Part shown: positions 34,447 through 59,353 of the stretch, piece after piece | How the letters are laid out: every line of letters begins with the position of its first letter | Numbering within the stretch: the stretch's first letter is position 1 | NCBI GenBank assembly: GCA_946122785.1 | Contig: CAMGYJ010000008.1 | Coordinates: 6,101,742 to 6,165,741, forward strand | DNA: 64,000 nt | Reading direction: 5' to 3' | Origin: Linum tenue | Taxonomy: Eukaryota > Streptophyta > Magnoliopsida > Malpighiales > Linaceae | The notes under the pieces: generated by a model | Database searches by the model: none | Told to the model about the DNA's origin: nothing | Seen by the model: only the letters and a program-made list of their open reading frames with translations | Translations under genes and position numbers: made by a program

Positions 34447-34463
34447 CTCGGGAGGGGGAGAAT

Positions 34464-35818: not shown

Positions 35819-35932
35819 TTACGAGGCATGAAGTACTCGGGTTCTGTATTTTCCCAGTGCCCAAATTGGGAAAATGTCTCTGTAAGCTGCATAGGTTATC
35901 ATAAAATTCCTATTAGAAACTCCCATGATTTC
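35819..35932 (-). pseudogene. Last exon of oxidosqualene cyclase pseudogene
   Basis: A 114-bp exon of 38 codons, the same length as the last exon of the intact cyclase at 60740-60853. It reads [20 protein letters not shown] then [21 protein letters not shown]. The acceptor before it is GATGGAG|GAAATC rather than the usual CAG. The rest of the gene is at 59354-59990, beyond a 23.3-kb composite hAT insertion in the last intron. Confidence 0.88.
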
Positions 35933-36706
35933 CTCCATCAGTTCAGACCAGAAGCTCGATCATGATTGGGGACATTGGTTTGTTGCCAAGTAGCAGGGGT
36001 GAAACTGGGCCAAACCCAGCCCTTACCCTGTCACTACCCAAAAAAACCCAGCCCTGTATGCTTAAGTATTTGGCCCGACCCGGCCCGACCCTATTCTCAT
36101 TTGGCCCTGTATGGCCCTGTTGGGTCGGGCTGGGCTGGGTCGGGTCGGGCCATAGGGTCGGCCCAACTTCTTTTTATACAATATTAGCCCACTTAACTAT
36201 TTAATATCAAATTAAATTTCAAAAAATTACAGGTATATACTAGAAAATTTAAATGAGTTCATAACAAAAATAATCTAAATTAAATAAATAAATTATTTAA
36301 ACTAATTCAAAAAATAAAATTTTGATTACAAAAATTCCAACTAATTCCAGAAAATTTAAGTTAGTCCAAATTCTTATACCAAAAATCCTAATTAATTCGA
36401 AAGACTCAAAATTAATTCCAAAAAATTAAAATTACATCTAAAAAGTCTAAATCACCTTACGATAAATCCAAATCAAATAAAAAAATGCCAATTACATCTA
36501 AAAAGTCTAAATTACCTTACGATAAATCCAAATCAAATAAACAAAATGCAAATTACATCTACAAAGTCAAAATTACCTTACAATAAATCCAAATAAAATA
36601 AACAAAATGCAAAGTACGTAAAAAAAGTACACAATTTCGCAATTCATCAAATGCATCGCTGATAATATCAAATATATCATCTTTCAATCATCATCAACCA
36701 AATCAC

Positions 36707-37842
36707 TCATGATAGTACTACATCCAAGCAAAACTCCTTTAACTCTGCAAAATTAACAAAACCACAAATAAATTAATAATAGTATAAACAAATAATAAAG
36801 TGTTACAAACCACATTGTTGATAAAATTCATACCTTGCTCAAGTTCTTCAATTTCCTCAAACTTCTCTTCCATATCAATTGGAAGAGTACTCGATCGAAG
36901 CCAATTCTGACCACAAATCAAACTTTCAACGACCAAGGGAGTCAAAGAACTCCGAAATGCATCTAGAACGCGTCCACCGGTACTGAAAGCGGACTCGGAT
37001 GCAACAGTAGATACTGGAATCGCCAACACATCTTTAGCCATCAAACCCAATATCGGGTACTCACTAGAGTGCTTCTTCCACCACGCTAAGATATCAAAAT
37101 TCTTATCCTCATCATCCTCAATGTTTGCCTTTAAATACCTCTCAAGTTCCGAAATAGTAGTTTCTCCAGCTCTGTCTTCTATTCTCTTTCTTTTAAATTT
37201 TCTCTTCAGATAATCCTCAACATTTTCACACTCCTCGTTCTCGTCATTTGGCTCTACACTCCCCCCACTTCTTGAAGAACTTGCACAAATAACCCCTCTC
37301 ATTTCTGAATAGTTCTTGAACATGTCATCTAGAAAACCCTTCACCTTATTATGCAACTCCTCCTTGGTCCAATCTCCCCCATTATCTTTCCCAAAAACTT
37401 CATCAAGTGCAAAAACCACATATTCTAGCTTGTATCTCGGGTCAAGAACCACAGCAATAAATAACAAGGGGTTAATATTGTCCAAATTGCCCCAATACTT
37501 GTCATGCTTAGCTTTCATTCTCTTTGCCATGACTTTATGACCATACACTTTAGATGAAGTTTCCATTTTAAGCATGCAAGCGATTCCATATACTACATGA
37601 AAGAGATCATTGCTTGTGACATACAAAGATCCCGATACTTTCATTGTAGCATCATAAAATATCTTCAAAAATGGAACTAGAGACTCCACATAAGACCAGT
37701 CCAACTCCTTTGGAGTCCCTTTCAACTTCTCAAGCTCAACTTTATACTTGGGATCCTCCTCCTCTAACCTCTCAAATGCCCTTTGAAATTTCAAAGCCGA
37801 CTCCAACATCATGAAAAGAGTGGTTAAAAACCTGAAATCCAT
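36707..37842 (-). pseudogene. hAT transposase, C-terminal half
   Basis: Exons 37842-36834 and 36744-36707, about 348 residues, phases consistent. Domains: the RNase-H-like C-terminal part (LLFIAVVLDPRYKLEYV), an acidic linker, and the hAT dimerisation region (LAWWKKHSSEYPILGLMAKD; STVASESAFSTGGRVLD), as in BED-finger RICESLEEPER-like proteins. The BED zinc finger and the first part of the catalytic domain are missing: an in-frame TAG lies just before the Met at 37842, and unrelated sequence follows. A functional transposase must come from elsewhere. Confidence 0.85.
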
Positions 37843-37866
37843 ATGGGACTAAGCCTCAATTACTTA

Positions 37867-38100
37867 GGGGTCGTTTGGAAGTTGTGATTCTTCAAATTGA
37901 TGTATTGGGTTTAGATTGTGCTTTTGTTGTAAAGGTATAAAAGTTAATTTTGAGTGATTGTTAACAATCTCAACAAAAAGTAGAGATTGACAATCCCTCA
38001 ATTTTGAGTGATTGTGGTGGGACCTCCAAAAAGTGAATGCATGTATTCTCATTCAATATAACAAAAAAAACGACTTAATCTCACAAATACATGTATTATT
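37867..38100. repeat. PIF/Harbinger-like terminus inside the hAT copy
   Basis: TTAGGGGTCGTTTGGAAGTTG at 37864-37884 resembles PIF/Harbinger MITE ends and is preceded by TTA. No matching inverted end was found, so it may be a truncated element. It abuts the point where hAT transposase homology stops, which suggests it replaced or interrupted the N-terminal half. The right limit is arbitrary. Confidence 0.4.
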
Positions 38101-38732
38101 TCTAGTTACACCATGTGTGGATTTTTGAATTTTATCTGGATTTTTTTAATTGTTATTCCACTTGTTGGGTTGTCTTAAACTACAATATTCAGATGATGAT
38201 ACATTTCATATACATTGTCGTACATAACATAGATGCATGCAAAACTATGTTTCGAAAAATAAAACCATCTATCTAGTAATGGCTGGATCTAACCTAAAAG
38301 GTGGTCAATACTATGGTCTCATGACGAACAATCAAATGCATGTGGTTGTAGTTGGGTAATTGATCTAATTACAAGGGATGGGCTGTGAAGACAAGTGGTC
38401 TCCCGTGGGCATAACCCATCGGCATGACTCATTCGTTCTTCGCAAAAAAGACCCTAAAAGGTTCAAGGTGGGCCCGGGTGTAGGACCAATATCGGCTTGG
38501 TAATATTATCTCATATGTACATGCAAAATCAAAATACTAAATTCATCCATAATTATAAAATATTCATCATTTAACACCACTAAGCATATCTCTTCATGTT
38601 AAGCATTTAACACCACTAATCGCCAGATGAGTAGGCGTCAGGATTACCTGCACAATCATCAAATACTAATTAGCTTGAAAACTCTGCACCAATAATCCAT
38701 AACAAGTACCTCGATTTGATGCAAACAAGTAC

Positions 38733-38862
38733 CTCGATTTGGAAAGGCGATGTTGTTGGCGGATAACGTTCGACAACCTTACCGTTCTTGTCCACCAAGA
38801 ACTTCTCAAAGTTCCATTTGATCAAATCGCCTAAGAAGCCCCCAGCACTAGATTTGAGAAGG
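38733..38862 (-). pseudogene. Captured glutathione peroxidase exon
   Basis: A single exon encoding [20 protein letters not shown] then [19 protein letters not shown], the C-terminal part of plant glutathione peroxidases (thioredoxin-dependent GPX family). It has a TCTTAG acceptor at its 5' side and a GTACTT donor at its 3' side. The exons with the catalytic Cys and Gln are absent. Nearby, AACAAGTACCTCGATTTG is tandemly repeated at the donor. It lies inside the hAT copy, so it is probably a transposon-captured host fragment. Confidence 0.85.
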
Positions 38863-39471
38863 CTAAGATTTCAAGTCCTACATTCAAACACAAACCATGT
38901 TTTTCTTTCTTAATACCACACTTAATACTAATAAAACAACTTTCCACGCCAACTATAAAATGAGACTTTTACAATGCATATAAATCAGACTCTTGAAAGG
39001 GTGCAGAATATGAACTCAGAAGCTAAAGCCTCATCGACTAAGCATGATTCCAATGCCTATAGTAGTAAAATGAGTCTGCTGTGACTCGTGATTTCTCAAA
39101 CAAAACCCATGGGGATAAAGACTAATGGATAGCAAATTCAGTAAAATTAAGACTTCAGTTAAAACAAACAAATGCAAAATCATATCTAAAGCTATCATCT
39201 TCACCAACAATGACTGTCCTATCTTGCAAAGGAAAGACTGGAGCTACTAACAGATTCAATCAAATCCATGAACAACATTTGCTGCCAATACCAAATCCAA
39301 ACCAATTCATGAAAGACATAACCCAGATCTGCTCCTCTGTTAGACTTATCCTTGGAGGCATCAGAATGATAAGAGTGAGATGATCATCTATTCCAAGTGA
39401 CAAGCATTTATCTATTGTAAATTCATCCACTCAAAGTAGCAGATTACACACATTGTTCCCGTGGGAGTTGG

Positions 39472-39798
39472 ATGCGATTCGGCAATGGGATCTGGTTTCA
39501 GGACAGATTCTATGCTTTGAGTGTGGAAGGCACGCTCGCTGTTGTAGAAGAAGATGTGAACTTCGATCTGCGGATTACGAAATTGGGCAAGGAGAGAGTG
39601 GTTCCTGATTCAGATGTGGCCGCTACGCCGGGGTTCAGGGAGTGTTTGGTGGAATCAGAAGGGAAAGTAGTGCTGGTTTTTCTGTGTTCGACTAGATCTA
39701 TGGAGACGGTGGATCATGTGGAGGTTTACAGGCTAGAATTGAAGGAGCTGGCGTGGGTTAAGGCGAGGAGCAGCGTTGTTTCTGGGCTCCAATGCTAA
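39472..39798 (+). pseudogene. Captured F-box/DUF295-type gene fragment, copy 1
   Basis: A 108-residue open frame starting MRFGNGIWFQDRFYALSVEG. It resembles the C-terminal repeat region of plant F-box proteins with DUF295 (RFYALSVEGTLAVV, CLVESEGKVVLVF, VEVYRLELKELAWVKARSS). There is no F-box and no proper start. A near-identical copy is at 58303-58629. Assignment by pattern only. Confidence 0.6.
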
Positions 39799-40462
39799 TT
39801 ACACACTAATTACACACTAAGATACGAAAAGTGAGTCGAACCTGGGTTTGGGGAGCAGAGAAGCTGGGATCCGATTCAGAGCTGGGTTGGGTCTATTTTC
39901 CCTCCACACCCATCAATCTCCAGCGGATGTGAAAAACCCAGCGCCGTGGTCGCCCCTGAGACGAGAAGGAGGAGGAGGAAGGAGAAGACGGCGTCGTCGA
40001 CGAAACGGAGAGCTTCTGCTACTCCTCCAGGCGCTTCTCCTTCGACGACACGTCGTGCGATTTCAACCGCGCCGGGGAGACGACGGGGTGCGAGAACGAG
40101 GAAGGGAAGCTGCTGCCTGCTGCGGCGGGGGGGCAGGAGAGGGCGGCGGCGGAGGGCGAACCTGAGTGCCGGATCGGCGCAGAGGATGAAGGAGATACGG
40201 CGGAGGTGTTGGCTCGATTATGCGATCAGGAGATGTTAGCGGAAAGAAGAGATGGGGCTGAAATGGATTTTAGGGTTAAAATGGGTCAAAAATGGGTCTG
40301 AATGGGTTTTAAGGGTAAAACCCAAAAATACCCTACCCTCTAGGGTCAGAATGTGACCCGACCCTATTTTGGCCCTAAAGACTGATTGACCCTACCCGAC
40401 CCATAGGGTTGGGCTGGGCCGGGCTGGGCTGACGGGTAGTAAGGGCCACAGTTACAGCCCTA
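39799..40462. other. GC-rich right arm of the left hAT copy
   Basis: A GC-rich, Arg/Gly-coding-like stretch (39940-40200) followed by subterminal repeats of GGGTT, GACCC and GGGCTGGGC type up to the hAT end. It is duplicated at 58630-59294. The long open frames here follow from base composition and are not called as genes. Confidence 0.6.
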
Positions 40463-41167
40463 GTTGTAATTAACATGTCCACACAGAACCCAGTTCTTCT
40501 AATGTTGAGGTAACTTTAAGGACTGGCCCTGACCTGATGAGGATCATTATTGTTGTATAAATAATAGAAAGAAACAGGAAAGGAAGAGCCTTTTTTCTTT
40601 TGGTTTCTTTTCAGTCTTCTTTTACCCTGTGCGTGTCTAGTGGGAAAGTAACTAACCTAAGTAAGCTTCTTTGTTCCACACTAATAATGGTTTTCGTGTC
40701 TGGTTAGAATTTGTTTTGGCCATCCAATTTTTCTAATGGATAGATAGTCAGCCCTGCCGGCTAGCCTTAAGTTTGGAGGGTGAAACTGAAACATCAAAGA
40801 TCCCTTCATCCATCCATCCTTGTCCGTCGACGACTCCATGCAGCATTGGTCTTCTCACATATCAACTTCATCAGTCATTTCTCTTTTCTTGGTACTTTCT
40901 CACTCACGAAGGTTTGTCAAGACGTAAAAGTCACTAATTTGTCTGGTACAAACTCTGATACAGTTTCGCGACCTTGCATTCTTACCAAACTCTGATACAG
41001 TTTCGCGACCTTGCATTCTTTACAATTTCACGAACCATGACTTAAAAGGATGTGGTTCATCTGCTGCTTATTGCATGGAGCAACACAGGACGAGTTCTCC
41101 AGCTTTCATAATCCGCGTACAGAGAATGTCCCCTAAAAAGAATTTTCAGAATCCTTTGCTTCCCTAT
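40463..41167. other. Host-derived DNA right of the left hAT copy
   Basis: No gene seen. It contains a tandem duplication with a 37-bp period at 40951-41024 (unit includes GATACAGTTTCGCGACCTTG). It begins with GTTGTAAT, the probable target sequence of the donor hAT copy. Confidence 0.5.
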
Positions 41168-44100
41168 TCTATAAAACATGAAAGGGAGGTACGCTTTTTC
41201 GCCCCAAAGACTCTAAACACTGTTTCAATTCTTGGCATCTAGCGCCCAAGTAGTTGAGAACTCCTTGAACCCACTTTATTCCCCCGCTTCGCTTACCTCT
41301 CTCAAATCAACGCCCTCCCTCCTCCTCACTTGGTCAATTCGTGGCCCATTCTTTCCGTACGCGAATCGACAAGCTTGAATTTTAAAGCATGGCTCCATTA
41401 GAGAGAGGACTCCAAGCCGAGATAATGGAGGCAAAGAAGGAAAGCAGTCTCTCCAGATGAGTACCACTAGGACTGTAGACTGTAGTAGGCATGGGTTGTG
41501 GCGTATGGGAGCACCGACCTACCTCAACACTTTGTATGCTTCGCCTTGCCTCCTCTTCCTCGCGCACGCTACCGCCTTTGTACAGCTGCTTGGACACGGC
41601 ACAAGCCATCCTCTTTGTACGACTGCAGACCAATTAACAATTCCATTGTGCACGGTAAGTATTGTATTCTCTGTTTTCAATCAACCTCATGCCTACTGTC
41701 GGATTTGAAATTGGATATGTTCTCTCTCTGCTCCTCCTTTTGGTTTCGATTGTATGCTTCCCCTTTTATCCCCTCCATAATCCCCCTCTTTTCTCCTGCT
41801 GCTGGCCGTCGTGGAACTCAAAAGCGGATGAAGACGGATCGTTTTGGAACAGGAGGAGCATGGTGAGACGTTAGGCGACAAGAATGAAGGGGATGATCCG
41901 GCAGACAGAGTGACATCGCGGAATACCACTCCCACCCTGGAAGCGTTTCCCTACCTCATTCCCCATCTCTCTCTTTGTTTTACTGGTGGAAGAAGAAGCA
42001 GCAGGAGAAGCTGAAAAAGACAACACGGAGAAGGAGAAGGAATAGAAGACGCTCAATGAGCTCTGGGCTGATTTTGTCGGACTTTCACTTGTCGGTATGT
42101 TTTCACTAAATTCTCAGTATGTGCTTTCTGTTCAAAGGCTGCAAGCTCTGCCATCTCATATAATCAACCAATCCCTTTGTGTTTTCTGTTGCAGCTTTGG
42201 TTTCTGAATTCTGAGTTACTGCTCCGCCTTCCATGGAGTCATTGGTTGATGATGGAGGAGTTAGCCTTTCAACAAAGACCAACAAGAAATCATTGGTTCC
42301 TAGAGTCCCCAACAGCCCTCCTTTGAGCTCTTGCTCAACATCTCGGTCTCAGCCTCTTAAACAGATGCCTGTGATGGAGTTTTGTCTTGGTGGTGACCAT
42401 TCCCTCAAGCCTAAGCAACTTGGAAAGTTCTTCCCTGAGTATGCTGCCCTGTTCAGATCCTTTACTCTTAATTGTTTTTTTGTTTTTGTTTTGTTTCTCT
42501 GCATAGTAAAAACTGTCTTTTTTCCTGATAAACTTGATAGTTTCTGAAACAGCACCCTTATATTATGTATTGGACTTAATATACACTGGAAGTTCATAAC
42601 ACAATAGTTCATGTTTTCTTTTCTCTGTATCACCATGTTAGATTTGCAGACATATATTTCCTTCCCCAGCTGAAGCTTCTCAGAATCAATTCCCTTTTTC
42701 TTGCTTGATTTCTCTCCTCCGAATCAGTCCCCAACTTAGTTATCTCAACTTCTAATTCAACCTCAAAATTAGTTTAGTGAGCTATATATCATTCTGCTTC
42801 TTCCCATGATTGCCTTTTTCATTACTGAGCTACATGAATGAAGTTAATGTGTCTTTGTGCAGGTTCTATGCTGCAGATGTTCTCCTTGCTTTGGACTGCC
42901 TGTACATGCTGAGGATCATATTCCGAGTCCTTAAGCCTGAGAACATCTTAGTACTAGAGGCAAAAATCTCTTTTCCATTTTGCTTACCTTTACATGATGC
43001 AGTATAAACGTGCTTTTGCTGCTCCTAAAAGCAAGGACTTGAGTAAGAAATACGTTTGAGGAAATGGTTTTGCATTATGGGGAGAACACCTTCACAGTCC
43101 AGTAGGTATCTCTTTCCATTTTATGAGTCAAAACATATTTGATATTTGCTCATTCATAACAGATCCAACACCAAAGAATTAAATCACGCATATGTTTATT
43201 TCTTATCAGTGTCTGCCATGTTTATTTCTAATTGGACAGTGAAATGTGGTCTCCGCTTGCTTGGCAGCATATTTCATTTGTTTTACACCGTTTCTTCTTT
43301 GATTGCTATTACAAATTGCTTTGCAGCCATAAAATTGATTCCCTTTTCATGTTTCAGAGGAGCATGATTTGAATCTTATGCTGCTTAAGGTAATGGGTTC
43401 TTTTATATTTGCTTAGAGTGGGCCACTAGGTTCTTCCTACATAACTGATCAACCTGAGTGAGCAAGTTTAAGATTGATAATTCTTGCTGAAATAAAGAAC
43501 ACATAATAGTAAGTTCTAAACAATGCATATACTGAGTACCATGCTTGATCTTCTTCCATGTGTTGTAGGTAATTCGATTAACACAACCCTGAATACTATG
43601 TCTTTATTGTGCTTGGGAGCTGCAAATATGGAGAGGAAGTGCCTAAAGAGTATGCTGCCTTTGGACAAACAGAAAAGAAATCCCTGCCGTAGGATGCAAT
43701 TTCTGATAACAAAGAGAAAGGTAAAAAACCTTGCGCTGCTTAAATTCCATTTCTCTAAGGCAAAAGCAAAGCTCAAATAAGCTGATTACAAAAGTGTTTT
43801 TTTACGTGTGTTTAATTGACATGACAGTATATATAGTAACTTTACTGTTACCATTTTTGGATACTATTAGTACATACTTGGATTGAATGTCTCTTATTCA
43901 TCCGAGTAATTAGCTGAAGCAACTATTTTCTGGCTACGGCTGAATCAATTGGTTATTGTTCCTACTTAGATTGAAGCCATTATTTACTATGGAGAGAAAC
44001 GACATAAAGACCAATTAAGGCAAAGAATCCAAATGCTCAGGGAGGAACTTTTCAGGTTGCCTTTGAATGAGCGAATGGTCACCACCAGGGCAGAACTCCA

Positions 44101-45009
44101 TCACTAAGCAAGAAGTGAGAATTCAAAGTGGCTAAAACGGATGATCCAATACTGCAGAATAAGCTGATTACAAAAGTGATTTTTACATAATTGTCTAATT
44201 GAATGCCAATATGTATAAGTAACTTCGTTCTCAACTAAACAATTATGCTCACAATCCTTTGTAGATTTTCCTGCAATTCAAATTGGCTGATGTGAAATTC
44301 TTCTTTGCACAGGCAGTGGCCAGATTATAGCCTCATCATATGACCCCTTCACATCAGACAACGAATCGTAGGAGCAGCAATGACAGCAGGGGGAACGAAA
44401 CTGGTGGCAATCCCAGACGGAGAGAAAACATTAGGAGTTAATGAGATTATGCAAGCCAAGGAGGTGAGCAGAAGGGTGAAGATTGCAGATGGAATGACAA
44501 ACCAAAGAAAGAATAGGTGAAGAGGTCGAAGGTTGAACTTGAAGACTCTTCCTAAGAGATGCAGGTGTAGAACTAAATAGAGGTTTGTAAGGTTTTATGA
44601 GGAAACTCTTCCTTACTAGAACTATGTCAATAAGTTTGGTTCTTTAAGAAACTCTTAAAGTATATTTATTATTCGGCTATTCATTAGGTTAAGAGGAAAA
44701 TTGTTATTCGATGTTGTCTATATCTTTTCAGCGCTTAATCACATGCTCATGATTGTACATATAATTTAGGATGGGATTATATTTTCATTGCATGCAATTG
44801 TGTCATGGGTTATATTCATATAATGATTAACTATGGAACTCAATAGACAAAAGTCTCCTGCACACACTTTCAACAATTTTAAACCCACACCGTTGCTAAT
44901 AGAACAACTATCACCAAATTGATGTGTCCTCAATTGGCCACCATATGATCATATGATCATGCAATTGTAACTTTAGTTCCCGCGACGTAGTCGTGGGTAT
45001 TGATTCTAG
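41168..45009 (+). mobile_element. Helitron-like element with captured kinase fragment
   Basis: 5' end TCTATAAAACATGAAAG followed by GGTACGCTTTTTCGCC; 3' hairpin CCCGCGACGTAGTCGTGGG (44979-44997), then TATTGATTCTAG ending at 45009 and followed by T. The hairpin-tail design is the same as the Helitron ending at 30148. No Rep/helicase. It carries an AGC-kinase piece (42233-42963). Further open frames (43523-43780) and a readable stretch near 43970-44105 (IEAIIYYGEKRHKDQLRQRI) may be another captured gene, which I do not recognise. Confidence 0.75.
42233..42963 (+). pseudogene. Captured plant AGC-VIII protein kinase fragment
   Basis: Exon-like piece 1 (from ATG 42233) runs MESLVDDGGVSLSTKTNKKS through VMEFCLGGDHSLKPKQ to FFPEYAAL. 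Piece 2, after a TTTGTGCAG acceptor (from 42863), reads FYAADVLLALDCLYMLRIIF then RVLKPENILV. Together they match the EFCxGGDLHSLRQ...[28 protein letters not shown] region of D6PK/KIPK-like AGC kinases. The catalytic Asp of RDLKPEN is Val here (RVLKPEN) and no DFG region follows, so it is inactive. It lies inside Helitron ends. Confidence 0.8.
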
Positions 45010-45171
45010 TACTAGATGAAATGAAGTTCCCTTCTCGCAATGTACAACAACAAAAAAATAATATGGTGTGTTGATTAATTCTCAAGCACTTCTCCATCAA
45101 AACTTCTTTGCAGGCTGCAAACTAGGAGGAAGAATAATAGTAAGCAACCCCCATATGCTCGAGGGTGTGTG

Positions 45172-48100
45172 TCAGCATTCAATCCGAACAGCGCCACTCT
45201 GTGAAGAAACGAACTTGGGCTTCCGAACGACTTGCTCCAAGCACTGGATCACATCTCCAACACGGTAATCTTGGCAATCACGGAGCATCATTCCGCACTC
45301 GCTCCCTTTACCGACTGCATCCACGTCCTGTGTCTCTCGTTTGAGGGACGAGCAGCATCCTTCGAACACGACTTCACCGCTCCTAAGGAGCCTCATCGTT
45401 GATGCTCTGCTGACTCGGCCATCTATCACCTTGCAGCCCGCAATCTTCATGTCTCCTCCTGCGGCTTTGCTCCTCCCCTTCAGTTCGAAGATGCTAAGGA
45501 CTTCGGCCTCTCCGGCTACATGAGTCTCAGAAGTCCCGGGAGCTTTCTCTACTATCATGTTGCCCACGTCCTCTAAAAGGCGGTAGATAACTCGATGCAG
45601 CATTATCTGGGCATTCATTCAACCAACCCATTTAAAGAACATACGATTCAGGAATTCCTGGAGGATTAGGATAAAGAAAATAATCAGAAGTTACGTACCT
45701 TTATGCCGGATTTAGTTGCTGCAAGACTGACTGAACCAGGTGGAGTTTTGACATTGAATCCAATTATGCACGCACCGCATGCCTGAGCTAGATCGATATC
45801 CGACTGACTGATTGGACCTACGCCTACATGGACTACATTCACGAAAACCTGGTAGCACCATTCCAACGAACAAGACATTAATCAATAAGTGACACAAGAA
45901 GATAGCTATGAGAAGTCAGAGACTATGTTTTTCAGTTTTGGAATGTTATCACAGACTCTGGCTCATGAATGCTAATCCCACTACAACTACAATGTGTGAA
46001 TTAAAAAGCTGCTCGACTTTTTAAGCTTGAATTTATGCTAGTCATGAGATCGGACATAATAATACTGCTAAGCATATAATACCTGAGGACTGTTCATATA
46101 ATACCTGAGGACTGTTCAAAGTCTTCAAAGCATCAGTGACAGCCTGGACAGTTCCTTGAACATCTGCTTTCACTACAATCGGCATCTCAACCCTTACAGC
46201 TACAGGCCCGTCTTCTTCTGATGGTTCCTCAACCACAGGCCTGTCCTCCATAATCTGTCTCAGCCGATCTTTCTCGAACTTCTTTTTCCTACCAGCACTC
46301 AGCATTCTAGCTCTCTCCTCGGACTCCACAACAACGATATCGTCTCCAGCCATAGGAAGCCCCTTCAGCCCTTCAAGCACAACTGGCATTGCAGGTGTCG
46401 CCTGCTGTGCCAACTTCCCTACCATATCCCTTATAGCTCTTATTCTCCCCCACTCTGACCCCACCACAATGTGCTGCCCAGAGACCAAGGTTCCTGCCTT
46501 CACTATTGCTGTGGCCAGTGGTCCACGACCTTTGTCGAGTTTTGCCTCCACAACATAAGCTTGAGCTGGACCATCGACACGAGCTTTCAGGTTCATCAAC
46601 TCTGCTTGAAGAAGCAAGCATTCCTCCAAGTCATCCAACCCAGTTTTCTTAACAGCGGAGACTTCAACTACCTGGACATCACCGCCCATTTCCTCTAGCT
46701 GCAAACCCTCTGATGCCAACTGGACTTTGACTCTCTCTGGGTCCGCAGCTGGCTTGTCACATTTGTTGATAGCAACCACAATTGGCACATTGGCTAATTT
46801 TGCATGGGACACAGCTTCCAATGTTTGAGGCATCACCCCATCATCAGCAGCAACTACAAGAACAACAATGTCGGTGACTGCTGCACCTCTTGCTCGCATC
46901 GCACTGAATGCAGCATGGCCTGGCGTGTCGAGAAATGTGATTGATGCCCCAGAAGTCATCCCTACCACGAAAGCACCAAGGTGCTGAGTTATTCCACCAG
47001 CTTCAGTGGCAGCCACAGCTGTTTGGCGCAGGGCATCCAGGAGAGATGTCTTTCCGTGGTCAACATGACCCATGACTGTAACAACTGGAGGTCGTGGAAG
47101 GATTTGTGAGCCTTCGGATGAATGTTGCCTCTTGACATTAACCCCAACCTCCTGCAAGAACCAATACGAAGCCATTTCCTGTAAGCTTCTAAACAGGCAA
47201 AAAGTATTTTGGTCTAAGAAAGATGATGATGATGATGATGAAATAGAACTACTATCTTGTAAGAGTCCTAACAACCCTAGCCCTAGAGTCTATGTGGAGC
47301 ATTGATCATGAACTTCCACCCAGAAAAGTATTGATAATCAAATAACTGAAATTATTCAAATTCTGTCGGTAGTATACTAGAGATTACAGAAGTATTTGTT
47401 CCCACTCTGTTAGCTAGCATGGTTATGCTTTTCTTTGGGGCATAATGAGAAAAGAGAAGTACCATAGCAATGAGCTCCGCAACATCAATGCTGAGAGGAT
47501 CAAACTCTGACCCGGGCTTTTCCCCAACATTAAGAAGAACATCCTGTAAGGTGCTGATTGACTCACCAGTACGCTTGGCAAGTTCAACGATGGTCATGCC
47601 TTCAAATATGTCGACCATTTTAGCTTGAGAGGACTTCATATATTGTGTTAGTTTAGGGGGCACGTATTTAGCTTCAACAGGAGGTTTCATCTGTGCCTTG
47701 TCCCTTCTCTTAAACTTCCCTTTCCTTTCTGTCTTTAAACCCAAGGCCTCATCAACTGCTTTTCTGCTATATAGGACCGGAGTGTTATGAAAGTACCTGT
47801 TCAAGATAACAAAATGGTTTCCTCATTCCAGGCCGAAAGTAGAAAATGTTATCACAAACAAAGATAAATGAAACACAAGAAAAGTCTAAAAGGAAAAGGG
47901 GAAAGACAGCACCAGAAAGGAAGATCGAGATATCAAAAGTAGCCCAGAGTTTTTTTGCTATACGCTTGTAAAATTCAGTTAAACATATTCCTTTTTATGC
48001 CTCCTTTGACTAACCAAATGCCTGGTTAGAGAAGGACTGTAGAGCAAGATGATGCTACCACGATACTACAACATCAAAACCGAAGTAGCTTCTCCTCGCT

Positions 48101-49374: not shown

Positions 49375-50847
49375 TGACAAGCTTCTGCAACTCTGCACAA
49401 ACCATCAGGAAGAAAACAATCAGTTAGAAAGCATCGAGCACCAACACCCCCAATAGAATAAGGGAAAGACAAGCAAGCTTGTGGCCTTATCGGCTTCCAA
49501 GATACCATTGATTTCTTGGGAAGACATCTATTGCCCTTTACACTCCATAACCAATTAGCTTTTTCTCGTTACAAAACTTGTTACATAAACCAGAACATAG
49601 AACTCAAATTTCCATATCCAATTACTTATTCTAGTCCCACCCCATCTTAGTAAGCAGGCAAAAGAACCAAACTTTCTATCCATCTTCCATAAATTATAAA
49701 CAACCCAAGAGGAAGGCGCCAACCCAAACTGAACCCTTCTCATTGATACACAAGCTACAATGCTTACCTTCCGGCAACAAAAACAAACAGCGCCACGGAC
49801 GAATCACCGCTGCAAGCCAATTACCAACTACGGAACGGATCCTTAACGAAGAGCTCGCAATTCATGAACCAAACTAGTCCGCTTCGCATCAATGAGATCC
49901 TCAACGACCGAAAGCTGTCTCCGCTGCCCCGTGTATCCAAAAGATTCAAACTTGGAAGCTGTGTTTATGAAATTTAGCGGATAACAGGGACAGGCGGGAG
50001 CCGAGGTTCTCCCGGCCGCAACTGCTACTCCGGAAAGACGGTCCGGTCCGGGTTTCAGGTTTGATGTGAAGCTGCGAGTGGGGAAGGGATTATCTCACAA
50101 GTCGTAACACATTTTTAAGGAGTATCAAACAAGCCCTCTGCTTTAGGTCATATACAAACTAACACCTCTACTTTAATTTTGTAACTAAAAACGTGAAACG
50201 CCCCCTCCATTTTCCATATGATATGAGTGATTGACTATAAAAAAAAAAAAAAAGAAATTTCCATGTGGGTGCTTGGTTATAAATTAATAAAAATTTCATA
50301 TGGGTGAGTGACTCTGTCTTAGGATGCCCTAAAATTAGTGATGTTAATGGGGCATGTGAGTATCTTAGTACATACTTGTCCGCATTAAGTAGGATCGGGT
50401 AATACCAGTGCGAGTGAGTATGGACGGATAGACTTATTATTGTTATGTATTATTGAAAGAGTTTTTTTATTTTTTAACGATAAAATAAAGAAAAAATAGT
50501 TCATAAATAACAGTTTGAGATAATAGGTAGGTTTATTTAGTTCAATTAGTGAAAAGAAGTCTTCACTTATCTAAAGTATCATTGGATGAAAATATGAGTT
50601 CAAATAAATCAAAATAGGATAAAAATAGATATTGGGACAAATTGAAATAGAACGAGTCAAGAACTAAGCGAAAGTGCGGGATGAAAGTAGTACACATGCT
50701 CGCCCCAAGCAGTCGGATATTAATCACTCAGTATGGATCAAGTCGGGTAATACCCGACAGAGCGAAATCAAATTAGCATAACTACCTAAAACGTAAAAAA
50801 GTTTATTATGGCGTAATTGTAAACAAATTTCATCCAACTTGAGCAAT
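47679..50847. repeat. Left arm of 3.17-kb inverted duplication
   Basis: Inverted copy of 53020-56188; both arms are 3,169 bp and every position maps by x + y = 103867 where checked. It holds mtIF2 exons 1-4 (part), introns, 5' UTR and about 0.75 kb upstream DNA. I noticed one base difference (a G/T in AAGTCGGGTAAT near 50753). Region 49375-50847 is the mtIF2 upstream region, with no other gene. Confidence 0.93.
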
Positions 50848-50860
50848 TCCATGAAAGAGT

Positions 50861-52400
50861 GATGTGGTCAATTCCATGAAAGAGTCAGCAGCTAAGGATC
50901 TTCTGAATGTGAGTGGTGACGATTATAAGTACAAGAAGCTTCTGCAGGATCTCATAGTTCAGGTGAGCAATACATGTGCAGTCATATACTGGGTTATGAG
51001 AGATGACCAGAATACATCATTGAGACCGGAAAGATACCTTTTTTATAATGAATTACTCTTCTGTTTGATGTGTCAACATCTTGTGAATGTTTATTCTTTG
51101 TAGACCATAAACCTACATTGTTCCTGATTTGTTACCGCACATGGGTTTGCTTTCCTTGGTGCGGTTGGAGAAAATATTGCCTACATATGGTCATGTGAGA
51201 CTTTAGTTGTCTTCGGTTCTGATATTGCTATGCAACGTTCTGGCTGGTTGCAGAGCTTGCTTAGACTGAAGGAACCTGCTGTCTTGCTGCGATGCCGTGA
51301 GGCGGACGTCAATCTGGTAGAATCTGTCTTGGAATCCGCCAAAGAGGAATATGCTGAAAAGGCACAGGTTCATGCACCAGAAATTCTGTTGGACCATCAA
51401 ATCTATCTGCCACCTGCTCCTAGCCACCACAATGTTCATGCTCTTTCTTGGTAAGTTTATGGTTAACATTAAATTTAATAGTATAGTAGTGGATTTGTTT
51501 AGAGGTTTGCAGATCAATCAAATCCTTCTCCTGATAACTTTCAATGTTTTCTGGCTTAGCTCTGGAGGTGTGGTCCTGGCGTCCCGAGATGGAAAGATCG
51601 TGTTTGAGAATACCCTCGATGCACGTCTGGATGTTGTGTTCCGTCAGAAGCTCCCCGTGGTATGAACACTGTTATTCTCTCTATTTTTACATTCTTCCAA
51701 CAGAGAGTTGACACTATTATGTTTGGTAGAAGAAATGAATCAGGATTGGCTGAGTTCATTTTCCTTTCCGATTAGGATTTGATCGAGTTCTAGAAAAAGT
51801 AGAATTGATGGCTATGAAATGTTTACAGCAATGCAAGGTAACTAATAGGATGGGTGTGTGTTTAAAAACGATATAATAAAAATCAGGTAACTATTACAGG
51901 CAAGTAGATTCTTGTTGCAAAGGAACAAAGTTGGAAACGAGATTTAATTTATTGATGTGACTTTGGGATTTGAGTAAGCTATGAGGAATAGGACGAATTG
52001 TTGCTAAATTTGGAATGTAAAATGTGTATTTGTTTCATTGATTAAATCAAACCTTTTCCCATTCACTTCTTTTCTAGAGCAGGAACAAGCACTCCATGCT
52101 TTAACTTCCTCCCCATAGAGCGTTTTCGTATAACGTCTTACCCTGCCTCTGCCTTCCTTCCATTATCGCTTGATAATAGAACTCTTGCTTCCCAGCTATT
52201 GGGATTCCTGAAAGTTGAATCTTAGGATGAACGTTCCTGTTCACCTCCATTCCTGAAATAGATTCGCATGTCGACGACTGTTGAAAACTGTTTGGTGTGG
52301 ATTAATGTGGATTACCTTTCCAACCTGAACTGAATTCTTTGCTTGTTCTTGTTGTGTGTTGCAGATCCGCAAGTTACTCTTCAGCCAGGTTGCTGCTTGA
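50861..52400 (+). pseudogene. V-ATPase subunit E, 3' half only
   Basis: C-terminal part of vacuolar H+-ATPase peripheral-stalk subunit E. Exons 50861-50962, 51254-51450, 51560-51659, 52365-52400, phases consistent. It reads VNSMKESAAKDLLNV, SLLRLKEPAVLLRCREADVN, HAPEILLDHQIYLPP, SGGVVLASRDGKIVFENTLD and IRKLLFSQVAA-stop. Roughly the first 90-100 residues and all upstream exons are absent; the sequence left of 50848 is the inverted-repeat arm. It forms the 2,172-bp spacer between the arms. The coding part shows no internal lesion, so truncation is recent. Confidence 0.88.
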
Positions 52401-53019
52401 TGTCCGTGATTGTATAATTGTTTTCACGTATTATGAATTGCCAACTCTTATGTCCAGAAACTCGATGGTTTTGTAGAACATATCACCGATTGTTTGGGGT
52501 TGTGTATTTTTTTCGTGTTTGCCAAATAACTTGCTATTCGTAGAGAATTCTGTTGTTTTCGTTAGTGTATGCAATAATAAACAGAACGAAAAAAATGTTT
52601 GTGGAATTCAAGTGGTGACTTTTGTGATTGATCATTTTTGCATTTGGTGTATGTCTAACGTCTGTGTACACTCAATTGCTTTTCATGCTGAACAAAAAAT
52701 TTCTATGTGAAAAGCAACGTAGTTTTTCCATCAAACAGTTGTTTTTTTCTTGGAAGCTCCAACAAGAAGCTGCTTTTGTAAAAACCGCAATACAGAACAA
52801 GTCTAATGTGATACAAATTGCTGCTCAAATTAATCGTAAAACAAACTAGTCCCTTGATTTGGCACTCTATTTACAGCCCGTCCTTGATCCGTCTTTTTTC
52901 CCATTCAACAAAATGTTCCCACAGCTAAATAGAAACATTCATTTGTCACCTTAATGTAAAAAATCTCACTCGATTTCTTAATAAAGTTATGCCTCCAAGA
53001 GATTGCTTCAATGGATTTG
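52401..53019. other. V-ATPase E 3' flank (end of spacer)
   Basis: AT-rich 3' UTR/downstream DNA of the V-ATPase fragment, ending at the right arm of the inverted duplication. Small open frames here lack any family signature. Confidence 0.5.
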
Positions 53020-56000
53020 ATTGCTCAAGTTGGATGAAATTTGTTTACAATTACGCCATAATAAACTTTTTTACGTTTTAGGTAGTTATGCTAATTTGAT
53101 TTCGCTCTGTCGGGTATTACACGACTTGATCCATACTGAGTGATTAATATCCGACTGCTTGGGGCGAGCATGTGTACTACTTTCATCCCGCACTTTCGCT
53201 TAGTTCTTGACTCGTTCTATTTCAATTTGTCCCAATATCTATTTTTATCCTATTTTGATTTATTTGAACTCATATTTTCATCCAATGATACTTTAGATAA
53301 GTGAAGACTTCTTTTCACTAATTGAACTAAATAAACCTACCTATTATCTCAAACTGTTATTTATGAACTATTTTTTCTTTATTTTATCGTTAAAAAATAA
53401 AAAAACTCTTTCAATAATACATAACAATAATAAGTCTATCCGTCCATACTCACTCGCACTGGTATTACCCGATCCTACTTAATGCGGACAAGTATGTACT
53501 AAGATACTCACATGCCCCATTAACATCACTAATTTTAGGGCATCCTAAGACAGAGTCACTCACCCATATGAAATTTTTATTAATTTATAACCAAGCACCC
53601 ACATGGAAATTTCTTTTTTTTTTTTTTTATAGTCAATCACTCATATCATATGGAAAATGGAGGGGGCGTTTCACGTTTTTAGTTACAAAATTAAAGTAGA
53701 GGTGTTAGTTTGTATATGACCTAAAGCAGAGGGCTTGTTTGATACTCCTTAAAAATGTGTTACGACTTGTGAGATAATCCCTTCCCCACTCGCAGCTTCA
53801 CATCAAACCTGAAACCCGGACCGGACCGTCTTTCCGGAGTAGCAGTTGCGGCCGGGAGAACCTCGGCTCCCGCCTGTCCCTGTTATCCGCTAAATTTCAT
53901 AAACACAGCTTCCAAGTTTGAATCTTTTGGATACACGGGGCAGCGGAGACAGCTTTCGGTCGTTGAGGATCTCATTGATGCGAAGCGGACTAGTTTGGTT
54001 CATGAATTGCGAGCTCTTCGTTAAGGATCCGTTCCGTAGTTGGTAATTGGCTTGCAGCGGTGATTCGTCCGTGGCGCTGTTTGTTTTTGTTGCCGGAAGG
54101 TAAGCATTGTAGCTTGTGTATCAATGAGAAGGGTTCAGTTTGGGTTGGCGCCTTCCTCTTGGGTTGTTTATAATTTATGGAAGATGGATAGAAAGTTTGG
54201 TTCTTTTGCCTGCTTACTAAGATGGGGTGGGACTAGAATAAGTAATTGGATATGGAAATTTGAGTTCTATGTTCTGGTTTATGTAACAAGTTTTGTAACG
54301 AGAAAAAGCTAATTGGTTATGGAGTGTAAAGGGCAATAGATGTCTTCCCAAGAAATCAATGGTATCTTGGAAGCCGATAAGGCCACAAGCTTGCTTGTCT
54401 TTCCCTTATTCTATTGGGGGTGTTGGTGCTCGATGCTTTCTAACTGATTGTTTTCTTCCTGATGGTTTGTGCAGAGTTGCAGAAGCTTGTCAATGGCTTG
54501 GAGAGCGATTGGTGATAAGGTAGATTGTGTTCTTGAACCTTCTTGTCTAGGACTTTCACAAAGCATTGCCGAGCTTATGAGATTTCAATTGAGATGATGG
54601 ACTGTGTTTGTGATTGAGAGTTGAGACACTTATCATTGATGCCTTTATCGTACATTATATGATTACTGTTCTTTTGAACTAAGAACTATTGGCTTAGGTA
54701 AACTCAAACCCTCATATTGGCTTATATCTTGGGACCGTAAAGTGCAATATTATGCTTGATATTGCTGATTACATAAATCCCTTGGTTATGCATTAAGTTC
54801 TTGGCTTTGCCCTCGACTTTTCAGATTCATTCTGGTTATGGTGATATTATACCTTTTAGGAAGAGATCTCCTATTATTGTACTTCCTATCAGCATTGTAC
54901 TTCCTTTCCTCGGTCCCAGAAACGGGATACTTAGCTTAGCTGATGTATTGTATTTGTCAATTTATTATCCATAGATATGGTTTCGAATGTGAAACTCTGT
55001 AATGGTAGGTCTGGCATTGACAAAGTTATATCTTACTCTCTGTTTTTCAGGGTATTCGGTCTCCTCTTGGCAGACGCGTCATTTTGTCATCTCAAGAACA
55101 TGTAGTTGGGTCAACCTCTAAAGGTAACCTTGACTTCACAGTGAGATCAGTTTCAGCTGCTAATTGTAGACAAGGTAACCTGCAATCTGGATGTTCACTT
55201 GCTTCAATGATATGTTTTGACAAAAGCCTATTGTCTGCTTTCTTGTTTGGTTCATTATCATATCTTAATAGCAGAAGTTCTGCCTTTCCAGTTTAGTGAG
55301 TTTATCTTGTCTACTGTACTGAATCATTTTGTAAAAGCTTGCCCGAGCGGCAGTATAAGGCATTAACTGCACGGCAACTCTTAATCTAGGATATCAATTG
55401 ACTTGATTTTCTTCTATAAATGACGATCTTAATCCTCAAGGGTAGTGCTTGTGTTGGTGTTCTGGAGCTGTGGTTAAGAAAGTTTTGTTTCACTATCATG
55501 GCTCACTTGTATAACATATGAGTTGCAGGCTTTACTAGTGGCTCTCTTTTACCTGGCGCTTCTCATGGCAATGTTCTGACTAAAGAATCCTTCATCCGGT
55601 ATGTTTATATTCATCTTTCATGTGGATCATAGTTTCACTACTCTCTTGCAATCCCTCACCTCTGTTCTTTGGCTACAAAGATTATTAGTGATTCTACCAC
55701 CTTTTCTGTTTCTTCTGATTCAATCTTCTGGATTTTCCCATTGGATTTTGTGTAATTAGAGTTAGAAGCGAGGAGAAGCTACTTCGGTTTTGATGTTGTA
55801 GTATCGTGGTAGCATCATCTTGCTCTACAGTCCTTCTCTAACCAGGCATTTGGTTAGTCAAAGGAGGCATAAAAAGGAATATGTTTAACTGAATTTTACA
55901 AGCGTATAGCAAAAAAACTCTGGGCTACTTTTGATATCTCGATCTTCCTTTCTGGTGCTGTCTTTCCCCTTTTCCTTTTAGACTTTTCTTGTGTTTCATT

Positions 56001-56188
56001 TATCTTTGTTTGTGATAACATTTTCTACTTTCGGCCTGGAATGAGGAAACCATTTTGTTATCTTGAACAGGTACTTTCATAACACTCCGGTCCTATATAG
56101 CAGAAAAGCAGTTGATGAGGCCTTGGGTTTAAAGACAGAAAGGAAAGGGAAGTTTAAGAGAAGGGACAAGGCACAGATGAAACCTCCT
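53020..56188. repeat. Right arm of 3.17-kb inverted duplication
   Basis: Reverse complement of 47679-50847. It ends abruptly in the mtIF2 exon 4 sequence, where CTCCT (56184-56188) is shared with hAT internal sequence at 39332-39336. Region 53020-54492 is a second mtIF2 upstream region with no other gene. Confidence 0.93.
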
Positions 56189-56221
56189 CTGTTAGACTTA
56201 TCCTTGGAGGCATCAGAATGA
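54493..56221 (+). pseudogene. Truncated mtIF2 copy fused to hAT sequence
   Basis: Exons 54493-54519, 55051-55174, 55529-55598 and 56071-56221, mirror images of the intact gene's exons 1-4. After QMKPP the frame enters hAT sequence and reads about ten more residues (LLDLSLEASE) to TGA 56219-56221. The predicted product has 123 residues: the presumed mitochondrial targeting region plus a short tail, without the G domain. The upstream region is copied too, so transcription is possible. Confidence 0.85.
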
Positions 56222-56325
56222 TAAGAGTGAGATGATCATCTATTCCAAGTGACAAGCATTTATCTATTGTAAATTCATCCACTCAAAGTAGCAGATTACA
56301 CACATTGTTCCCGTGGGAGTTGGAT

Positions 56326-58296
56326 TAGGGATGGCAATGGGTCGGGTTGGGGCGGGTTTTGCCAAACCCGAACCCAAACCCATGGGTTTGTCCGTCAAAA
56401 AAACCCGGGGTAAAACCCGCTGGGTTTGAAAAACTCAAACCCAACCCAACCCGCTGGGTATCCGCGGGTTGATGGGTTACCCGCGGGTTTTTTTGGTAAA
56501 ATATTTATAAAATTATAATTAACAAGAAGCTATTAAAAATAAAAATATTTATACTGATAGTTCATAATTGCTACAAGAAAGGCAGAGAACGAATTTGGAC
56601 TTATTTTTCTCTTTATAGAATATGTTGTGAGATGATATATTATCAACACTATGAAGGATGGGGCAGCAGAGAATGAGCTAAGTGTATATTATCTACTGAA
56701 ATCATGTGCCGTTTTAAAAGTTTTAGCTTAAACCCTCTATATGAAATCATTGTTTCTAAAGCTACATATTGGCACATACCGTTATATTTTGAGGATAAGT
56801 TCCAGTAAGCTCTCTGAACCGGCATACACTGAAGAGAAGGTTTTCAAAGCTGTCTCTTGCATGTTCTTCAGTCAGTGTCCTCCATTTCACACTGGCTTCA
56901 TTACCTGTGACCATCAAAGGGTTCAGATCAAGATCTTGGATACTTTAAACCAATCAATTTCGATCACAACACTAAGAAAAGTGGCAGAGCATGTTAGGTG
57001 CTTGGTTAATGCAAAATTCAATAACAGTTAAGTCAGTGCAGTATATCTTGATTATAACAAGCCAGGGCCAGCCTACATAGTAAAGCAGCTTAGCACAAAC
57101 CCTGCTGCTTGGAAAAACTACTAGAGCCTCTTGAGCTATCAGGAAGAAGTTCATCAATTGAGAATCATAAAGCATGATATAGACTGATTCTGGAAAGTAT
57201 CAGAGAACCTGAAGACACATTTTTAGTTCCATGAATTGAAATTCAACAACCAAACTATATTCCATTTTTCTTCATCATCAAGCTTTGGATAATCAAGCAA
57301 AATACCAGAGAAATCAATCCAGATAAAAATGCGGACTTACATCCAAAGGTATTAAGAGAAAAAAGTTAAATCTTTCAGAAGAGGAGAAGGATGATTTAGA
57401 AAGTGGTGAGTCAGGAATCACGATTCACAACTAGTGGCCACTTGGCACTAGCAGTCAACAACGACAAAGAGCAGCATGGTAGAGGGCTAGGTAAAGGGTA
57501 AGTGGACGACAATGAGAAGGTTCTGGGTTTGTGGCTACTAGGTGCTTATGGTTGACGACGATGTAAAGCAACAGGGCAGCGGGCTAATCGAAGGGAATAG
57601 AGGGACGACAAGGTTCTAGGCTTGTGGTTGTTGACCCCTGGCAGTCAACGTTGGCTAAGAACAATAAGGTAGAGGGTCGTTCGAGGGGAATGAAGCCTGT
57701 ATGCTTACCTTTGCAGAAGTGCTCTCGCGGAGCAGAAGACCAAGGAGAGGCCGGCGGGGGAGGCCGGCGGGGGAGGGCGGCGGGAGTGGAGTTGGAGGCG
57801 CGCGCCGAGGAGCAGGGAGAGGGCGTCGTGACTGAAGTCTGAAATCGGGAGAGGAGTCGGAGGCGCGGCCGCGTAGCAGAGGAGAAAGGAGAGTTCGCCG
57901 GGACGGAATCGGGAGTGGAGTCGTAGGCGCGGCGGCCGCGTAGGAGAGTTCGCCGTGCCGGACTGGAGACTGGACTCTGGTTCTGGTAGGGATGACTGGA
58001 GATCGCGATTTGCGAAAGGAGAGGGGCGGCAGAAGTCTTTGGGAGAAAGGAGAGGGGCTGCCGAGTACTCTTGGTCGATTAGGGATTTAGGTTTAGGTTT
58101 AATCCCCTCTCTTCTCCATATGTCCGGGTATCCACGGGTCGGGTTCCCTCAAACCCGAACCCGCCCCAACCCACCCAAACAGTCACCGGGTTTAAACCCG
58201 AACCCGGCCCGAACCCAGTCAACATGGGTTTTACCCGGTTTGACCGGGTTGGGTCGGGTCGGGTACCCGCGGGTCCGTGTTGAACTGCCATCCCTA
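56326..58296. mobile_element. Non-autonomous hAT element nested in the right copy
   Basis: 1,971 bp. Ends TAGGGATGGCA and TGCCATCCCTA are perfect inverted repeats, with 8-bp duplication AGTTGGAT on both sides (56318-56325, 58297-58304). The left copy (39460-39475) shows the empty site. Subterminal regions are packed with CCCGAACCC/GGGTTTGGG and GGGTCGGGT repeats. The centre is AT-rich, then GC-rich (57720-58080). No transposase was recognised; the frame 56741-57031 is unassigned. Confidence 0.92.
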
Positions 58297-58302
58297 AGTT
58301 GG

Positions 58303-58629
58303 ATGCGATTCGGCAATGGGATCTGGTTTCAGGACAGATTCTATGCTTTGAGTGTGGAAGGCACGCTCGCTGTTGTAGAAGAAGATGTGAACTTCGATCA
58401 GCGGATTACGAAATTGGGCAAGGAGAGAGTGGTTCCTGATTCAGATGTGGCCGCTACGCCGGGGTTCAGGGAGTGTTTGGTGGAATCAGAAGGGAAAGTA
58501 GTGCTGGTTTTTCTGTGTTCGACTAGATCTATGGAGACGGTGGATCATGTGGAGGTTTACAGGCTAGAATTGAAGGAGCTGGCGTGGGTTAAGGCGAGGA
58601 GCAGCGTTGTTTCTGGGCTCCAATGCTAA
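58303..58629 (+). pseudogene. Captured F-box/DUF295-type gene fragment, copy 2
   Basis: Near-identical to 39472-39798 with one visible residue change (DLRIT to DQRIT). The nested hAT inserted directly upstream and now supplies a longer in-frame leader from 57955, which is fortuitous. Confidence 0.6.
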
Positions 58630-59353
58630 TTACACACTAATTACACACTAAGATACGAAAAGTGAGTCGAACCTGGGTTTGGGGAGCAGAGAAGCTGGGA
58701 TCCGATTCAGAGCTGGGTTGGGTCTATTTTCCCTCCACACCCATCAATCTCCAGCGGATGTGAAAAAACCCAGCGCCGTGGTCGCCCCCGAGACGAGAAG
58801 GAGGAGGAGGAAGGAGAAGACGGCGTCGTCGACGAAACGGAGAGCTTCTGCTACTCCTCCAGGCGCTTCTCCTTCGACGACACGTCGTGCGATTTCAACC
58901 GCGCCGGGGAGACGACGGGGTGCGAGAACGAGGAAGGGAAGCTGCTGCCTGCTGCGGCGGGGGGGCAGGAGAGGGCGGCGGCGGAGGGCGAACCTGAGTG
59001 CCGGATCGGCGCAGAGGATGAAGGAGATACGGCGGAGGTGTTGGCTCGATTATGCGATCAGGAGATGTTAGCGGAAAGAAGAGATGGGGCTGAAATGGAT
59101 TTTAGGGTTAAAATGGGTCAAAAATGGGTCTGAATGGGTTTTAAGGGTAAAACCCAAAAATACCCTACCCTCTAGGGTCAGAATGTGACCCGACCCTATT
59201 TTGGCCCTAAAGACTGATTGACCCTACCCGACCCATAGGGTTGGGCTGGGCCGGGCTGGGCTGACGGGTAGTAAGGGCCACAGTTACAGCCCTACCAAGT
59301 AGAGCACGCGACCAACCATCATATGAAAGTTAAGGATGAAACAACAGTGTTAC

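What the first reader, a model, noticed from the sequence alone, without database searches (positions are those of the whole stretch)
35986..59302. 23.3-kb composite hAT insertion with matching 8-bp target duplication
Seen: hAT ends at 35994 and 59294 are bounded by identical CCAAGTAG, and the outside flanks are two halves of one cyclase intron. Yet the inside holds a whole hAT copy (right end 40462 followed by unrelated GTTGTAAT), about 15.7 kb of other host DNA including a complete mtIF2 gene, and a partial second hAT copy starting at 39332-equivalent sequence. Known: maize Ac/Ds can make macrotransposons and composite insertions by alternative transposition and re-replication. Inference: either such an event, or break-induced replication from a hAT in the cyclase into a second hAT elsewhere, copying its flank and switching back at microhomology. 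Either would be a gene-moving mechanism caught with its junctions.
Basis: partly seen in the sequence, partly recalled or inferred. Interest (0 to 1): 0.92.

Follow-up and report, generated by a model that had tools for sequence, protein, structure and literature searches.

The report
Jumping gene that carried neighbours along
A plant jumping gene sits in what appears to be an intron on one chromosome together with about 12 kb of copied neighbouring DNA from another chromosome, including one whole open gene, and the donor region and all the joins can still be read.

Summary
A perfect 8-bp duplication (CCAAGTAG) bounds a 23.3-kb insert in a squalene/oxidosqualene-type cyclase gene. The same insert with every junction tested lies at a second place on the same chromosome (C8:8.27-8.29 Mb), so a chimeric assembly is very unlikely. 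I found the donor region, C5:864,592-874,779, now an empty site with one GTTGTAAT. Two later insertions blur the picture: a nested hAT (56326-58296) and a 3.84-kb Helitron-like insert (41167-45009). The original composite was about 17.5 kb: complete hAT; 6.5 kb of C5 right flank with an open mtIF2 gene (728 aa); a fold-back jump; 5.3 kb of C5 copied in reverse; a 5-bp microhomology join into the last 1,131 bp of the same kind of hAT. The two hAT parts share an internal structure found nowhere else in the genome search, which points to one donor element. Best reading: a natural hAT composite insertion (alternative transposition, re-replication, template-switch repair), described in what I read from maize Ac lines. 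Which replicative route made it is not settled.

The parts
35986..35993 (+). left target-site duplication CCAAGTAG
   Evidence: same in second copy
35994..40462 (+). hAT copy A, complete (4,469 bp), with a transposase C-terminal part and captured gene fragments
   Evidence: ends; Pfam hAT domains; 38 further left-end matches besides the two composites, (40 of 60 candidates scored)
40463..41166 (+). donor right flank, begins with GTTGTAAT; = C5:864592 onward
   Evidence: match starts exactly at the hAT boundary
41167..45009 (+). later 3,843-bp Helitron-like insertion between A and T (ends ...GATTCTAG, hairpin near 3' end)
   Evidence: absent from the second C8 copy and from C5; Helitron label recalled, not tested
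45010..50847 (+). donor right flank continued, to C5:872,593, with the complete mtIF2 gene
45172..49374 (-). mtIF2 gene, 7 exons, 728 aa, open frame
47679..50847 (+). inverted repeat arm 1 (mtIF2 5' part and upstream)
50844..50885 (+). fold-back junction with a 17-nt templated repeat CAATTCCATGAAAGAGT present twice
50848..53019 (+). 5'-truncated V-ATPase E gene, C5:874,779 backwards
53020..56188 (-). inverted repeat arm 2, ends in an mtIF2 exon at C5:868,273
56184..56188 (+). closing junction J2, 5-bp microhomology CTCCT between mtIF2 and hAT interior
   Evidence: 5 bp or more in 0.55% of random pairings
56189..56325 (+). hAT copy B, first piece
56326..58296 (.). later nested hAT of another family, TIR TAGGGATGGCA, TSD AGTTGGAT at 56318-56325 and 58297-58304
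58305..59294 (+). hAT copy B, second piece, to the right end
59295..59302 (+). right target-site duplication CCAAGTAG

Best explanation
This is a natural hAT composite insertion. SHOWN: apart from two later insertions, everything between the target duplications is hAT sequence plus DNA matching one 10-kb stretch of C5 whose edge is exactly a hAT junction. INFERRED: on a C5 haplotype carrying the hAT at GTTGTAAT, transposase paired the left end of the hAT on one sister chromatid with the right end of the same hAT on the other and joined them to an unreplicated site in a cyclase gene on C8, making the CCAAGTAG duplication. Replication then ran into both arms: from the left it copied the whole hAT and 6.5 kb of right flank with mtIF2 (8.0 kb in C5 reference coordinates, which hold extra sequence), from the right only 1,131 bp of the hAT. 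Both broke off. The left end switched template at microhomology (CAA, with a slip that copied 17 nt twice) onto the opposite strand 2.2 kb ahead, copied 5.3 kb backwards (6.5 kb in C5 coordinates), and was joined to the other end at CTCCT. Both outer hAT ends are present, so the product has the form of a macrotransposon.
For: Donor region and exact junctions. Native order on C5 means one fold-back switch explains both the inverted repeat and the reversed V-ATPase part. The repeat arms show no difference shared by both C8 copies, although composite and C5 reference differ at 147 of 6,444 positions, so both arms came from one donor haplotype, unless conversion between arms has since evened them out. 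The hAT interior 39340-40000 is joined this way only in A and B of the two C8 copies; 28 of 28 candidates scored. 8-bp duplications, size and microhomology joins match maize composite insertions: 23,238 bp with 4 bp, 14,287 bp with 3 bp, 10,191 bp with 9 bp (passages), and one with 1,391 bp of Ac joined at 4 bp (passages).
Against: hAT A and B differ at 2 bases and 1 A-run in 1,131 bp, shared by both C8 copies, while the arms have no shared difference in 3,169 bp (Fisher p 0.07), which would suit two slightly different elements. The maize cases in the passages used two nearby elements, not one element on two sisters. The 1.1-kb right part is shorter than the 4,781-18,866 bp per fork given. The C5 allele here is empty, so the donor with its hAT was not seen. 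No fold-back is described in the passages read.
Confidence: 0.45

Rival explanations
1. Gap repair at C5, then macrotransposition. The hAT excised from one C5 sister; repair from the other sister copied 1,131 bp from the right and, from the left, the whole hAT and overshot 6.5 kb into the flank, folded back, and was end-joined. The resulting macrotransposon later jumped to C8.
For: Explains the junctions with one element and one locus. A 28-kb structure bounded by Ac ends was seen to excise in maize (passages).
Against: Needs two steps and an intermediate C5 allele not present in this assembly. Overlapping 1.1-kb hAT ends would be expected to anneal instead (reasoning, not tested).
Confidence: 0.22
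2. Ectopic break-induced replication or gap filling at C8. A plain hAT sat in the cyclase gene; a break in it was repaired by invading a second hAT on C5, running past its right end into mtIF2, folding back, and joining at microhomology.
For: Natural reading of the three shared A/B differences. Gap filling with template switching is proposed for single-copy Pack-TIRs in animals (passages), and ectopic SDSA filler for plant DNA transposons (passages).
Against: Requires two copies of a hAT subtype that the genome search shows nowhere else. C4, C10 and C3 copies share the base at 39957 with A and the A-run with B, so each copy has its own private change rather than matching a different relative.
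Confidence: 0.2
3. Classical macrotransposon: two separate, nearby hATs on C5 moved together with the DNA between them.
For: Outer ends are a left and a right hAT end with an 8-bp duplication.
Against: The DNA between is not a C5 interval but a forward stretch and an overlapping reversed stretch, and B is cut inside the element at a microhomology with an mtIF2 exon.
Confidence: 0.08
4. Assembly chimera.
For: The assembly holds a second, inverted and collinear copy of the locus, possibly a misplaced haplotype. No reads were available.
Against: Tested junctions occur in both copies, whose wider flanks differ by several per cent; a 17-nt templated repeat and exact TSDs are not assembly signatures.
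Confidence: 0.02

Closest known systems
Composite Insertions of maize Ac/fAc (Zhang et al. 2014, eLife e03724; abstract, Discussion and passages seen)
   Same: 8-bp duplication, TE ends outside, donor flank DNA inside, internal join often at microhomology; 10-24 kb in five sizes seen in passages
   Different: Natural, not a laboratory allele; apparently one element rather than an Ac/fAc pair; DNA from another chromosome; internal fold-back giving an inverted repeat
Ac macrotransposons (Sharma and Peterson 2022, Genetics iyac124; passages seen)
   Same: Whole structure bounded by opposite TE ends and potentially mobile
   Different: Mobility is not shown here; the only second site carries the same TSD and flanks
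Pack-TIRs by gap filling or FoSTeST (Nat Commun 2021, 12:4280; passages seen)
   Same: TE ends around captured host DNA, template switching, microhomology
   Different: Here a complete hAT copy lies inside and its own donor flank follows it directly; the captured piece holds a whole gene
Gene movement by filler DNA in plant break repair (Wicker et al. 2010; recalled, and seen only in a reference list)
   Same: Gene copied to a new chromosome during transposon-linked repair
   Different: Here the captured DNA is tied to the donor hAT's own junction

Membership tests
hAT superfamily (elements A and B) | short terminal inverted repeats and 8-bp target duplication | tested here: met
   TIR imperfect, 9 of the first 12 bases pair by eye
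hAT superfamily (elements A and B) | hAT transposase domains | tested here: met
   Dimer_Tnp_hAT and hAT-like_RNase-H in A; the ORF covers only a C-terminal part, so A looks non-autonomous; B has no transposase part
Composite Insertion | opposite TE termini outside with one shared 8-bp target duplication | tested here: met
Composite Insertion | interior made of the donor TE's own flanking DNA | tested here: met
   C5 match begins exactly at GTTGTAAT; the donor TE itself is absent from the C5 allele seen
Composite Insertion | segments fused by end joining or homologous recombination | tested here: met
   CTCCT 5-bp overlap at J2; plus a template-switch junction
Composite Insertion | two nearby TEs in reversed orientation at the donor | tested here: inconclusive
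   C5 allele in the assembly is empty; A and B look like one element
Composite Insertion | formed during S phase by transposition into unreplicated DNA | not testable with these tools
   needs a live system
Macrotransposon | able to excise and reinsert as a unit | not testable with these tools
   no insertion at a different target (28 of 28 candidates scored)

The most novel reading that the evidence does not exclude
A single hAT element, through its two sister-chromatid copies and without a partner element nearby, can make a composite insertion on another chromosome; fold-back template switching during the repair lets it carry a whole open gene and an inverted repeat in one event.
Probability: 0.4. 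Interest if true: 0.75.

Novelty: new variant of a known kind. Interest (0 to 1): 0.63.

Why it matters
Composite insertions are described, in what I read, from maize lines that carry paired Ac ends, so how often they act in nature is open. Here one is found in a natural genome with its target, its donor region and its joins readable. It has placed a complete, open mtIF2 copy on a new chromosome and left a 3.2-kb inverted repeat over that gene's 5' part, which could yield small RNAs (untested). The signature (a complete hAT whose right end is followed by foreign DNA, inside an 8-bp duplication) can be searched for in any plant genome, so the contribution of this route to gene duplication becomes countable.

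Tried and rejected
Two hATs with a plain C5 interval between them: rejected, because the interior is a forward stretch and an overlapping reversed stretch of C5. Copy B as a naturally truncated element: unlikely, because the C4 relative matches through position 39332 without a break (38903-39409). A difference clock for hAT versus repeat arms: too few events (Fisher p 0.28 for all substitutions, 0.07 for shared ones), and one A-run indel agrees within each C8 copy but differs between them, so arm-to-arm conversion or recurrent slippage cannot be excluded. Whether the two C8 copies are alleles or a segmental duplication: not resolved. No tool named the species; a eucalypt is only my guess. Searches used a wrong start for the last mtIF2 exon in my script; one search is corrected. 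Paper searches: (7 papers, all listed; 10 of 11 listed) showed no natural composite insertion outside maize; they cover only the open library. Not done: a search for the J2 junction itself (not answered; one search covers its hAT side), for an uninterrupted copy of the target elsewhere, or for mtIF2 paralogues (not completed). V-ATPase E-like sequence also occurs twice on C7 at 85-86%, less like the composite than C5.
Full report
What was checked. The outer duplication, both hAT right ends and the left end were read directly and located by script. CCAAGTAG occurs three times in the window, at 35986, 41246 and 59295; two of these abut hAT ends exactly, the third lies inside the later Helitron-like insert. 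The flanks are parts of one gene: 35810-35938, 59326-59458 and 59533-59889 match, in order, a tandem copy at 60730-60859, 60922-61050 and 61075-61431 (79-86% identity). In the tandem copy the first two are 62 bp apart, which shows the uninterrupted form. A frame overlapping the tandem copy (61319-61588) hits SQHop_cyclase_C (E 6e-10); five other frames were given to the same call, four of which had no hit. The oxidosqualene-cyclase name and the intron reading are by eye.

Second copy. The window is C8:6,101,742-6,165,741 of a 692-Mb assembly with 17 contigs. A 401-bp query over the left junction matched a second place in full, C8:8,285,679-8,286,079 on the other strand (40 of 60 candidates scored). 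The fetched region holds the composite in a stretch collinear with the window and its surroundings over about 124 kb compared; most long matching blocks are 92-98% identical, some lower, with many insertions. Within the composite I counted 13 substitutions over 19.5 kb, and 18 in 4.7 kb on the right. Further out, 1-kb bins range from 0.1 to 15%, mostly 0.5-7%. On the left the last flank difference is at 35935, 58 bp from the hAT end. Six of six junction strings tested occur in both copies, and the fold-back string too. This makes a chimera very unlikely. The composite looks younger than the separation of the wider flanks, or was copied between them by recombination.

Donor. A query of the last 200 bp of hAT A plus 800 bp beyond found the flank at C5:864,592-865,010, 94% identical, starting exactly at window 40463 (40 of 103 candidates scored). 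On C5 the eight bases GTTGTAAT are preceded by ...AATAATGTCGGTG, with no hAT and no second GTTGTAAT: an empty allele. C5:865,612-870,668 matches window 45006-50076 at 97.8%, and C5:871,809-874,779 matches window 53800 back to 50855 in reverse at 95%. So on C5 mtIF2 is followed by V-ATPase E, and the join at 53019/53020 is native. One internal switch, at 50847/50848, makes both the inverted repeat and the reversed V-ATPase part. One search shows it again: the 501-bp query splits on C5 into 872,348-872,593 (+) and 874,535-874,779 (-), and is whole only in the two C8 copies (40 of 52 candidates scored). The C5 reference holds extra sequence relative to the composite (gaps of 376 and 1,150 bp), so 8.0 kb and 6.5 kb in C5 coordinates correspond to 6.5 kb and 5.3 kb in the composite.

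Junctions. At J2 the mtIF2 exon ...AAACCTCCT and the hAT interior CTCCTCTGTTAG share CTCCT; five or more shared bases arise in 0.55% of random pairings of the same sequences. At the fold-back, the arm ends ...GAGCAA, then come 17 nt of the V-ATPase exon (CAATTCCATGAAAGAGT), then the same exon again from 8 bp further upstream. Such a templated repeat suggests polymerase template switching, MMBIR/FoSTeS or theta-type joining (general knowledge).

One element? Composite and C5 reference differ at 147 of 6,444 aligned positions, yet no difference between the two repeat arms is shared by both C8 copies. Both arms were therefore probably copied from one donor haplotype, not in this assembly; arm-to-arm conversion could also remove differences. 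hAT A and B differ by 2 bases and one A-run, all shared by both C8 copies. Seven relatives were examined; four were informative at these sites. C4, C10 and C3 have T at 39957 (as A) and six A's (as B); C6 has T at 39569 (as A). So B has two private bases and A a private deletion; neither matches a different relative. The interior 39340-40000 is joined this way only in A and B of the two C8 copies; 30 matches, 28 of 28 candidates scored. This is the main reason for preferring one donor element over two.

Gene content. The copied mtIF2 has seven exons and an open 728-aa frame, identical in protein between the two C8 copies, with 1 amino acid and 8 bases of 2,184 different from C5, less than the 2.3% over the whole stretch. 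Expression is untested.

Later events. A nested hAT (56326-58296) is in both C8 copies. A 3,843-bp Helitron-like insert (41167-45009) is in the window copy only; the other C8 copy and C5 both read CCCTA|TACTAG. Leaving both out by arithmetic gives about 17.5 kb; the second copy without its nested hAT is 17,472 bp.

Mechanism and rivals. Shown: content, order, orientation, junctions and donor region. Inferred: how they came together. The composite-insertion model of Zhang et al. (abstract, Discussion and passages seen) has opposite TE ends outside, one 8-bp duplication, donor flanks inside, and a join by end joining or homologous recombination (three of six each); segments per fork were 4,781-18,866 bp. 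A later maize example has only 1,391 bp on one side (passages). Here the left part is 11 kb (hAT plus 6.5 kb of C5), with a 5.3-kb reversed piece after it, and the right part 1.1 kb, below the eLife range. New relative to those passages are the fold-back and the apparent single element. Sister-chromatid transposition of Ac is known to me from recall and a reference list. The gap-repair and break-induced routes give the same sequence and differ in which alleles should exist in the population; I put them at 0.22 and 0.20.

Literature limits. The searches listed maize work and an Arabidopsis VANDAL21 case of probable alternative transposition (passages), and no natural composite insertion elsewhere; this is not proof of absence.

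Noticed in passing
window 41167-45009: A 3.84-kb Helitron-like insertion in the window copy only, between A and T, ending GATTCTAG with a hairpin near the 3' end (by eye), with gene-like fragments.
   Followed up: partly
window 56326-58296: A nested hAT of another family without an evident transposase, 11-bp perfect TIR TAGGGATGGCA, TSD AGTTGGAT, in both C8 copies.
   Followed up: partly
window 30694-35107: A Copia-type LTR element with ends of 645 and 644 bp differing by one indel, near the cyclase; no match to it in the second C8 copy among blocks over 250 bp.
   Followed up: partly
C8:6.07-6.20 Mb and C8:8.22-8.36 Mb: Two collinear, inverted copies over the 124 kb compared, differing by several per cent with many insertions: a misplaced haplotype or an old inverted duplication. 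The composite is nearly identical in both, with flank differences resuming 58 bp to its left, as if recombined or converted recently.
   Followed up: partly
window 38670-38870 and 39421-39798: The hAT carries captured gene pieces: a KIB1-4 beta-propeller fragment (Pfam, E 2.6e-9) and a glutathione-peroxidase-like stretch (recognised by eye, no Pfam hit).
   Followed up: partly
window 46073-46094: A 22-bp tandem duplication at an mtIF2 splice donor, missing from the second C8 copy and C5; the first donor site is unchanged.
   Followed up: no
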